The translations under genes and the position numbers were made by a program. Shown here in pieces: positions 28,147 through 29,451 of a stretch of 64,000 nt of DNA. Each line of letters opens with the position of its first letter. Within the stretch, counting starts at the first letter, position 1. The DNA lies in contig CANLSF010000001.1 of assembly GCA_947493695.1 (NCBI GenBank), positions 434,001 to 498,000 on the forward strand. Direction: 5' to 3'. The notes beneath the pieces are model-generated. The model was given only the letters and a program-made list of their open reading frames with translations. It made no database searches and was not told the origin of the DNA. Origin of the DNA: an uncultured Kiloniellaceae bacterium (GTDB taxonomy: Bacteria > Pseudomonadota > Alphaproteobacteria > Kiloniellales > Kiloniellaceae).

Positions 28147-29451
28147 TCACACCTTTTTTGGTGCCGCCTTCGGAGCCGCTGGCTTCTTGGCCGGAGCCTT
28201 CTTGGCAGCGGCCGGTTTGGCGGCGGCCTTCTTCACTGCTACTTTCTTGGTAACGGGTTTTGCCTTGGCTGCCGTTTTTGCAGCCGCGGGCTTCTTCGCC
28301 ACAGGCTTTTTCACCGCGGTCGTTTTTTTTGCGGTCGTCGTTTTTGCCGCAGGTTTTTTAGCTGCAGGTTTCTTGACGGCAGCTTTCTTGACTGCGGGCT
28401 TCGCAGCAGCCTTCGGTTTTGCAGCCGCTTTGACCGGGGCCTTCTTCGCAGGGGCTTTCTTGGCGGGTGCTTTTGCAGCAGCAGGTTTAGCCGGCGTTCC
28501 CTTCATGATGCCTTTGCAGACATCAACCAGACCCTTTACGGAGCCAACCGACTTGCTCAGCATCGCCTTCTCGCCTGCATTAAGCTGCAGTTCGACAATC
28601 CGCTCGGCACCACCTGCTCCAATAACCACGGGCACACCGACATACATGCCTTTAACGCCATACTGGCCATTCAGACTGACGGCACAGGGCAGAACCCGCT
28701 TTTTATCTTTCAGGTAGCTTTCCGCCATGTTGATTGCTGAAGCCGCCGGCGCATAGAAAGCAGAACCGGTTTTCAGCAGGCCGACAATCTCGGCACCGCC
28801 ATTACGGGTGCGATCGACAATCTCGTTCAGACGCTTACGCGTGATCCAGCCCATCTTGATCAGATCGGGCAGCGGAATGCCGGCAACCGTCGAGTAGCGC
28901 ACCATGGGCACCATGGTATCGCCGTGTCCGCCCAGGACGAAGGCGCTGACGTCTTCGACCGAGACATTGAATTCTTCCGCAAGGAACAGCCGGAAACGGG
29001 CCGAGTCCAGCACACCTGCCATGCCGACGACCTTGTTCGCTGGCAGGCCGGAAGCCTGCTGCAGCACCCAGACCATGGCATCAAGCGGATTGGTGATACA
29101 GATCACGAAAGCGTTCGGGCAATTCTTTTTGATGCCTTCGCCAACGGCCTGCATGACTTTGATGTTGATGCCCAGAAGATCGTCACGGCTCATACCCGGC
29201 TTGCGCGCAACACCCGCGGTCACGATGACCACGTCGGCGCCTTTGATGGCTGTGTACTTGCTGCTGCCGGCAAGTTTGGAGTCAAAACCTGCGACGGTGG
29301 AGAGCTGTGCGATATCGAGCGCCTTGCCCTGGGGCACGCCATCGACGACGTCGAACAGCACGATATCTCCCAGGTCTTTAAGTCCGGCGAGCAAAGCCAG
29401 CGTACCACCGATGTTACCGGCACCTACGAGCGCGATCTTCTTGCGAGACAT
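28147..29451 (-). CDS. mdh: Malate dehydrogenase with Lys/Ala/Pro-rich C-terminal extension
   Basis: Oxidises malate to oxaloacetate with NAD. Residues 1-316 are a normal LDH-like Mdh: [19 protein letters not shown] for NAD, the [11 protein letters not shown] block, the catalytic His in GGHGDTMVP (about residue 176), and Arg in [13 protein letters not shown]. The start at ATG 29451 ([12 protein letters not shown]) has an AAGGAA site 7 bases upstream; the frame runs back to 29508. After the usual end (VDVCKGIM) the frame continues for 118 residues made almost only of Lys, Ala, Pro, Val and Thr, in repeats such as [12 protein letters not shown] count 39 Lys, 44 Ala and no Asp or Glu. The family normally stops near 320 residues. 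The tail resembles histone H1-like bacterial tails. Confidence 0.95.

What the first reader, a model, noticed from the sequence alone, without database searches (positions are those of the whole stretch)
28147..28503. Malate dehydrogenase carries a 118-residue histone-H1-like Lys/Ala/Pro tail
Seen: after the normal end of Mdh (about residue 316) the same frame runs on for 118 residues, 39 Lys and 44 Ala by my count, no Asp or Glu, in KKPAAKK-type repeats. Known: such tails occur on bacterial histone-like proteins (HctB, AlgP) and bind nucleic acid or polyanions. Inferred: the TCA enzyme may bind DNA, polyphosphate or RNA, or be recruited to a complex. The neighbouring SucA also ends in a short Lys/Ala-rich segment, hinting at a shared trend.
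Basis: partly seen in the sequence, partly recalled or inferred. Interest (0 to 1): 0.72.

Follow-up and report, generated by a model that had tools for sequence, protein, structure and literature searches.

The report
Malate dehydrogenase with histone-like polylysine tail
In this bacterium and its near relatives the metabolic enzyme malate dehydrogenase carries a long, floppy, strongly positive tail like that of DNA-packing histone H1, kept by natural selection and seemingly gained more than once, so the enzyme may stick to DNA, RNA or another negatively charged polymer.

Summary
Confirmed and extended. The Mdh frame (window 28147-29451, minus) is an intact LDH-like malate dehydrogenase of about 319 residues followed by 115 residues of only A, K, P, V, T (38 Lys, no Asp/Glu). 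It is no artefact: 4 of 4 genomes of the genus have it (115-146 residues), as does the one genome of genus g2. Gaps between species are multiples of three, differences favour third codon positions, and tail dN/dS is about 0.11 (core about 0.01). Eight Mdhs of the same family end at 319-320 without a tail. Of 142 Mdh genes read in the class (not a random draw), 51 have a basic tail of 11 or more residues and 9 a long one (78-309), with 449 Lys/Arg and 1 acid in 1247 residues. Long tails need at least 5 changes on the tree, 3 forced by well-supported branches. SucD and, where readable, citrate synthase lack tails in those genomes. SucA has a short basic end but no extension. A poor AlphaFold model leaves the tail without structure. 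Best reading: a selected polyanion-binding tail, most likely for nucleic acid; the ligand is inferred.

The parts
28495..29451 (-). mdh core: LDH-like NAD malate dehydrogenase, residues 1-319
   Evidence: TIGR01763 414 bits (cut-off 352), NF004863 461 bits; PF00056/PF02866; aligns to PDB 4ros over 1-315; ATG 29451 preceded by AAGGA
28150..28494 (-). C-terminal tail, 115 residues of A/K/P/V/T, net +38, predicted disordered
   Evidence: pLDDT under 50 over 321-434 and no secondary structure (poor overall model); conserved in genus with dN/dS about 0.11
28147..28149 (-). stop codon (TGA) of mdh
26717..27913 (-). sucC (398 aa), next gene downstream, no basic tail
   Evidence: sequence; name read from the translation, not searched against a family library
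25841..26716 (-). sucD (291 aa), no tail; used as control enzyme
   Evidence: name read from the translation and place
22855..25779 (-). sucA (2-oxoglutarate dehydrogenase E1); end ...SRKAAAANQTAAKAGKKK, short basic tail
   Evidence: TIGR00239 over cut-off; comparison of 30 relatives

Best explanation
Shown by sequence: the tail is a translated polycationic extension of an intact malate dehydrogenase, and selection keeps its make-up (Lys, Ala, Pro, no acidic residue) while its letters and length drift. Predicted: it is disordered. Inferred: Mdh of this kind is a tetramer (recalled), so each molecule would carry four tails, about +150 charges, and act as a multivalent binder of a cellular polyanion, most likely nucleic acid (nucleoid DNA or RNA). 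It would place the enzyme on the nucleoid or in nucleic-acid-rich zones and could let it bridge or compact nucleic acid, without changing its chemistry. Short basic tails (11-44 residues in the window's clade of 28) look like the older state there (inferred from the tree); tandem duplications of 15 nt and longer then lengthened tails in several lineages.
For: Tail in 4 of 4 genus genomes and the 1 genome of genus g2. G002 against Denitrobaculum tricleocarpae (G003): differences by codon position 6/5/29, single gap of 12 nt; dN/dS 0.11; 11 nonsynonymous changes against 28-29 expected without selection (0 of 3000 simulations as low), no acidic residue against about 3 expected (101-128 of 3000 simulations give none, a modest result). 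Nine long tails: 1247 residues, K386 R63, one D, no E. Long tails need at least 5 changes on the tree, 3 forced by starred branches. No structure predicted for the tail. Composition as in AlgP, whose KPAA-repeat end is needed for granule positioning and whose C-terminal peptides are reported to bind DNA (PMC9239181, passages read). In the sampled own genome the other two most basic protein ends belong to nucleic-acid enzymes, RNase R and TopA. SucD (10 genes of the 9 long-tail genomes searched) and citrate synthase (end readable in 8 of 9) have no tail.
Against: No binding data of any kind. Composition alone does not tell DNA, RNA, polyphosphate, membrane or acidic protein apart. The tail evolves about nine times faster than the core relative to silent change (0.11 against 0.012-0.013), so constraint is on make-up, not sequence. 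Many relatives live without it (91 of 142 rows in the 'none' class, including 4 with ends of 11-20 residues but net charge under +4). The co-occurrence with stand-alone H1-like genes is patchy outside the home family. E. coli Mdh, which has no such tail (recalled), gave only weak iCLIP signals, under a section heading that says iCLIP gave no hints (PMC10380284, passages). The fold model is poor overall (mean pLDDT 55.7, 13 sequences), so its disorder call is weak by itself.
Confidence: 0.5

Rival explanations
1. The polyanion is inorganic polyphosphate or a storage-granule surface: the tail recruits Mdh to granules in starvation, as the KPAA tails of AlgP (polyphosphate) and PhaF (PHA) do.
For: AlgP has a 154-residue KPAA-repeat region, is found on polyP granules, and its end is needed for granule spacing; PhaF shares that end (PMC9239181, passages). 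The Mdh tail has six KPAA words.
Against: No granule gene or granule proteome of this genus was examined. A literature search on Mdh, polyphosphate and granules (24 papers, 10 listed, titles and abstract starts seen) listed none on the subject.
Confidence: 0.15
2. Neutral or nearly neutral growth: a short Lys-rich end, harmless because exposed, was lengthened by repeat slippage and is merely tolerated; the absence of acids reflects selection against disturbing the enzyme rather than a gained function.
For: Tails contain tandem units of 15 nt (g2, weakly the window) and of 24, 48, 72 and 114 nt (G032); length differs strongly between sisters (G032 309, G033 47); absence is common; the tail drifts much faster than the core.
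Against: Tail dN/dS about 0.11 and nonsynonymous changes far below the neutral simulation; charge kept although letters and length drift; long tails in at least 3 separate places on the tree but none on SucD or the readable citrate synthases.
Confidence: 0.15
3. Electrostatic metabolon: the cationic tail holds oxaloacetate and acidic partner enzymes near the active site and speeds transfer to citrate synthase or the neighbouring TCA complexes.
For: A mitochondrial Mdh-citrate synthase complex is described (PMC8455617, abstract start in the listing). mdh is followed by sucC, sucD, sucA and sucB on the same strand (names of sucB, C, D read from translations), and SucA of this genus has a short basic end.
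Against: SucD and readable citrate synthases show no matching feature in the long-tail genomes. Channelling should hardly need tails of 78-309 residues (inference).
Confidence: 0.1
4. Sequencing or assembly error: a frameshift or misassembly joined an H1-like gene to mdh.
For: Low-complexity sequence is prone to errors; the own genome has an H1-like gene broken at a contig end.
Against: Same fusion in relatives, including D. tricleocarpae R148 and Pelagibius sp. Alg239-R121; codon-level selection across the tail.
Confidence: 0.01

Closest known systems
LDH-like bacterial malate dehydrogenase (TIGR01763; PDB 4ros, 3gvh/3gvi)
   Same: Core of 315-319 residues, family cut-off passed, substrate and catalytic positions (R83, R89, D149, R152, H176 by my recall of the family) present
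   Different: These solved chains are 320-324 residues long; here 115 polycationic residues follow the core
AlgP and PhaF of Pseudomonas (KPAA-repeat, H1-like C-terminal domain)
   Same: Lys/Ala/Pro repeat end, predicted disordered, of similar length (154 residues in AlgP, PMC9239181 passages)
   Different: Carried by a TCA-cycle enzyme instead of AlgP's small helical domain or PhaF's granule-binding part (the latter recalled)
Bacterial H1-like proteins (PF07382 HC2; NF038053)
   Same: Composition and KKPAA-type words
   Different: The window's tail scores below both curated cut-offs; not a stand-alone protein
Basic ends of bacterial TopA and RNase R
   Same: Basic tail added to a folded enzyme; both occur side by side in the own genome
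   Different: Those enzymes act on nucleic acid; Mdh does not

Membership tests
LDH-like malate dehydrogenase (TIGR01763) | Curated score cut-off for the whole protein | tested here: met
   414.1 bits against 351.85
LDH-like malate dehydrogenase (TIGR01763) | Substrate/catalytic residues conserved (positions recalled) | tested here: met
   R83, R89, D149, R152, H176 present and invariant in alignment A1 of 13 sequences
LDH-like malate dehydrogenase (TIGR01763) | Tetramer with NAD-dependent activity | not testable with these tools
   needs purified protein
HC2 / bacterial H1-like protein (PF07382) | Curated cut-off 40 bits | tested here: not met
   27.5 bits for the full protein, 31.5 for the tail; 35.4 in the genome search. 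The Mdh tails of G003 (53.5 bits), G004 (69), G001 (42, read past its stop) and G002 (46.1 with neighbours) do exceed it
HC2 / bacterial H1-like protein (NF038053) | Curated cut-off 80 bits | tested here: not met
   25 bits
AlgP/PhaF-type KPAA tail | Disordered Lys/Ala/Pro repeat C-terminus without acids | tested here: met
   composition; 6 KPAA words; no predicted structure; poor model
AlgP/PhaF-type KPAA tail | Binds DNA or granules | not testable with these tools
   needs binding and localisation experiments

The most novel reading that the evidence does not exclude
In several alphaproteobacterial lineages malate dehydrogenase doubles as a nucleoid-associated protein: a tetramer with four H1-like tails that bridges DNA and could tie chromosome packing to TCA-cycle or redox state. 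In one genus outside the order (g124 of family f104, 4 of 4 genomes) a consensus ribosome-binding site and ATG stand exactly at the tail's start (GGAGG, 5 nt, ATG, then MAAK or MAAT), so there the tail may also be made alone as a nested H1-like protein.
Probability: 0.2. Interest if true: 0.85.

Novelty: new variant of a known kind. Interest (0 to 1): 0.62.

Why it matters
H1-like tails are known on DNA-binding and granule proteins. Finding them on a housekeeping TCA enzyme, kept by selection and gained more than once in one class while SucD and the readable citrate synthases stay bare, suggests a shared physiological reason to anchor malate dehydrogenase to a polyanion. It gives a directly testable case of metabolic enzyme placement, or of an enzyme turned chromatin protein, in bacteria.

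Tried and rejected
Artefact or frameshift: rejected by relatives and codon-level selection.

General trend of basic tails in the genome: not seen. Whole-genome searches with the tail (9 places up to E 10; 1 is Mdh itself, 5 lie in the H1-like frames at the ends of contigs C9 and C6, 3 are weak) and with HC2 (5 matches in the own genome) find Mdh, H1-like frames, TopA and the weak places. In 373 sampled genes only RNase R and TopA are comparable. Short tails elsewhere in the genome could be missed.

Shared trend with SucA: weak. My notebook entry calls the SucA end mixed in all 30; that is wrong for the window's genus and three of its genomes, as told above. Internal start in the window lineage: M315 has only AAGG 4 nt upstream, in codons conserved anyway; not enough. 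RNA element: no Rfam match in the window at gathering scores. Promoter/terminator scan of 27850-28600 at chance level.

Link of tail with stand-alone H1-like genes: in the home family a match over the HC2 cut-off outside Mdh occurs in 11 of 12 tailed genomes and 0 of 8 tail-less ones whose Mdh was read, but this may be one or two evolutionary events. Among 18 genomes that I chose elsewhere it is 4 of 9 tailed and 1 of 9 tail-less. Not used as evidence.

Literature: ten searches. Those pairing Mdh with lysine-rich, nucleoid, channelling, polyphosphate or histone-like terms listed no paper that by title or abstract start describes such an Mdh tail; two searches listed only 10 of 24 and 15 of 311. 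The library is open-licence PMC only; two papers were read in passages, the rest seen as listings. No fold search was run.

Full report
What is there. The minus-strand frame at 28147-29508 encodes a complete LDH-like malate dehydrogenase: TIGR01763 at 414 bits against a cut-off of 352, Pfam NAD-binding and C-terminal domains, and alignment to the solved structure 4ros over residues 1-315. The likely start is ATG 29451 with AAGGA upstream. Where solved Mdhs end, the frame runs on for 115 residues using only five letters: A44 K38 P17 V9 T7. The core has net charge +8 and the tail +38; the whole protein has pI 10.2.

It is real. The same architecture is in 4 of 4 genomes of the genus; two are named by matching contig lengths, D. 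tricleocarpae R148 (G003) and Pelagibius sp. Alg239-R121 (G001). It is also in the single genome of genus g2. The two closest species (G002, G003) align over 402 tail nucleotides with one 12-nt gap and 40 differences, 29 of them at third codon positions. Tail dN/dS is 0.11. The core has no nonsynonymous difference between these two, and dN/dS 0.012-0.013 for the window against each of them, so the tail is looser than the core but far from neutral. Placing 40 random mutations in the G003 tail gave 28-29 nonsynonymous changes on average against 11 seen, never as few in 3000 runs, and about 3 acidic residues against none seen (none in 101-128 of 3000 runs, by transition bias). So the segment is translated and its make-up is kept. 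The more distant pairs have ambiguous tail alignments and nearly saturated silent sites, and I do not lean on them.

It is widespread but not universal. I read 142 Mdh genes of 141 genomes. 55 are from the order, where 56 of 61 genomes gave a match; the two truncated genes of G048 and G049 were dropped, and G042 gave two genes. 87 are from the 184 other class genomes with a match; the remaining 97 were not read. The 87 were not drawn at random: 27 were the best-scoring and 60 were mostly picked because the match ran long or through a stop. Of the 142, 9 have long tails (60 or more residues; in fact 78-309), 42 short basic tails (11-59 residues, net +4 or more), 4 other short ends, and 87 none (lengths from core position 314). 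In the home family genus g1 is long, g2 long, g5 15-37 residues (7 of 7 read), g4 none (8 of 8 read, 319-320 residues). Three of its 23 genomes gave no Mdh match at the threshold. A clade of 28 rows (support 94, not starred) holds 27 tailed Mdhs; label 'long' needs at least 5 changes on the tree, 3 forced by starred branches (quick tree, 61 of 137 inner branches weak). The separate long cases are G032 (309 residues, +96), family f104 (78, 89 and 148 residues in 3 genomes; the fourth runs off its locus) and G118 (97 residues). The nine long tails together hold 386 K, 63 R, one D and no E in 1247 residues.

It is specific to Mdh among the enzymes tested. In the nine long-tail genomes given, SucD has no tail (10 of 21 matches read, covering all 9 genomes; the G004 one is only 59% identical and may be a paralogue), and citrate synthase has none where the end could be read (8 of 10 fragments, 8 of 9 genomes; G118's runs off its contig). 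SucA's end is short in the 30 genes read from the order. It is acid-free in three of the four genomes of the window's genus and in one other, and mixes acids and bases in the rest; G056 has a longer, mixed one. In the own genome the tail query and the HC2 model find, besides Mdh, H1-like frames at contig ends, TopA and weak places.

How it probably works. AlphaFold gives a last helix at 292-316 and no structure, with pLDDT under 50, from 321 to 434. The alignment was thin (13 sequences), the mean pLDDT only 55.7, and parts of the core were also under 50, so this is weak support. A chain of this make-up is what AlgP and PhaF use; in AlgP the KPAA domain is needed for granule spacing and C-terminal peptides are reported to bind DNA (PMC9239181, passages). 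I therefore commit to polyanion binding, nucleic acid first (0.5), polyphosphate or granules second (0.15), tolerated repeat growth (0.15), metabolon (0.1). The ligand step is inference.

Origin. Tandem units of 15 nt (g2, also weakly in the window), and of 24, 48, 72 and 114 nt (G032) point to growth by duplication. In f104 (four genomes of one genus) the tail begins with MAAK or MAAT right behind GGAGG and five bases in 4 of 4, which could be the fossil of a fused H1-like gene or a live internal start. The window's lineage shows only a weak AAGG before M315.

Known or new. H1-like tails are known; I found no paper on one on malate dehydrogenase in the searches named in Tried and rejected. 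I call it a new variant of a known kind.

Noticed in passing
L113, L118, L293, L294 (f104 Mdh 3' ends): GGAGG-N5-ATG stands exactly before the Lys/Arg tail in 4 of 4 genomes of one genus, a consensus ribosome-binding site for a possible nested H1-like protein.
   Followed up: partly
L075 (G032) and L068 (G033): Near-identical Mdh cores, but a 309-residue tail against 47 residues; behind the G033 stop the DNA still resembles the longer tail by eye.
   Followed up: partly
L157:11574-16722 (G000:C3): Adjacent topA and RNase R genes both end in strongly basic tails.
   Followed up: no
L159 end (G000:C9:181382-182047) and L160 start (G000:C6): H1-like frames with 60-nt repeats (seen in C9) lie at contig ends and may be one broken gene.
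   Followed up: no
L243 (G056 SucA): SucA with an unusual 81-residue end rich in Lys and Ala but with seven acids.
   Followed up: no
L254 (G094:C12) and L270 (G094:C71): A genome with tail-less Mdh has several HC2-like frames of 487-817 residues, near contig starts.
   Followed up: no
L107-L111: Named loci from other phyla and classes matched only the Lys/Ala tail of the query, not Mdh; they were not examined.
   Followed up: no
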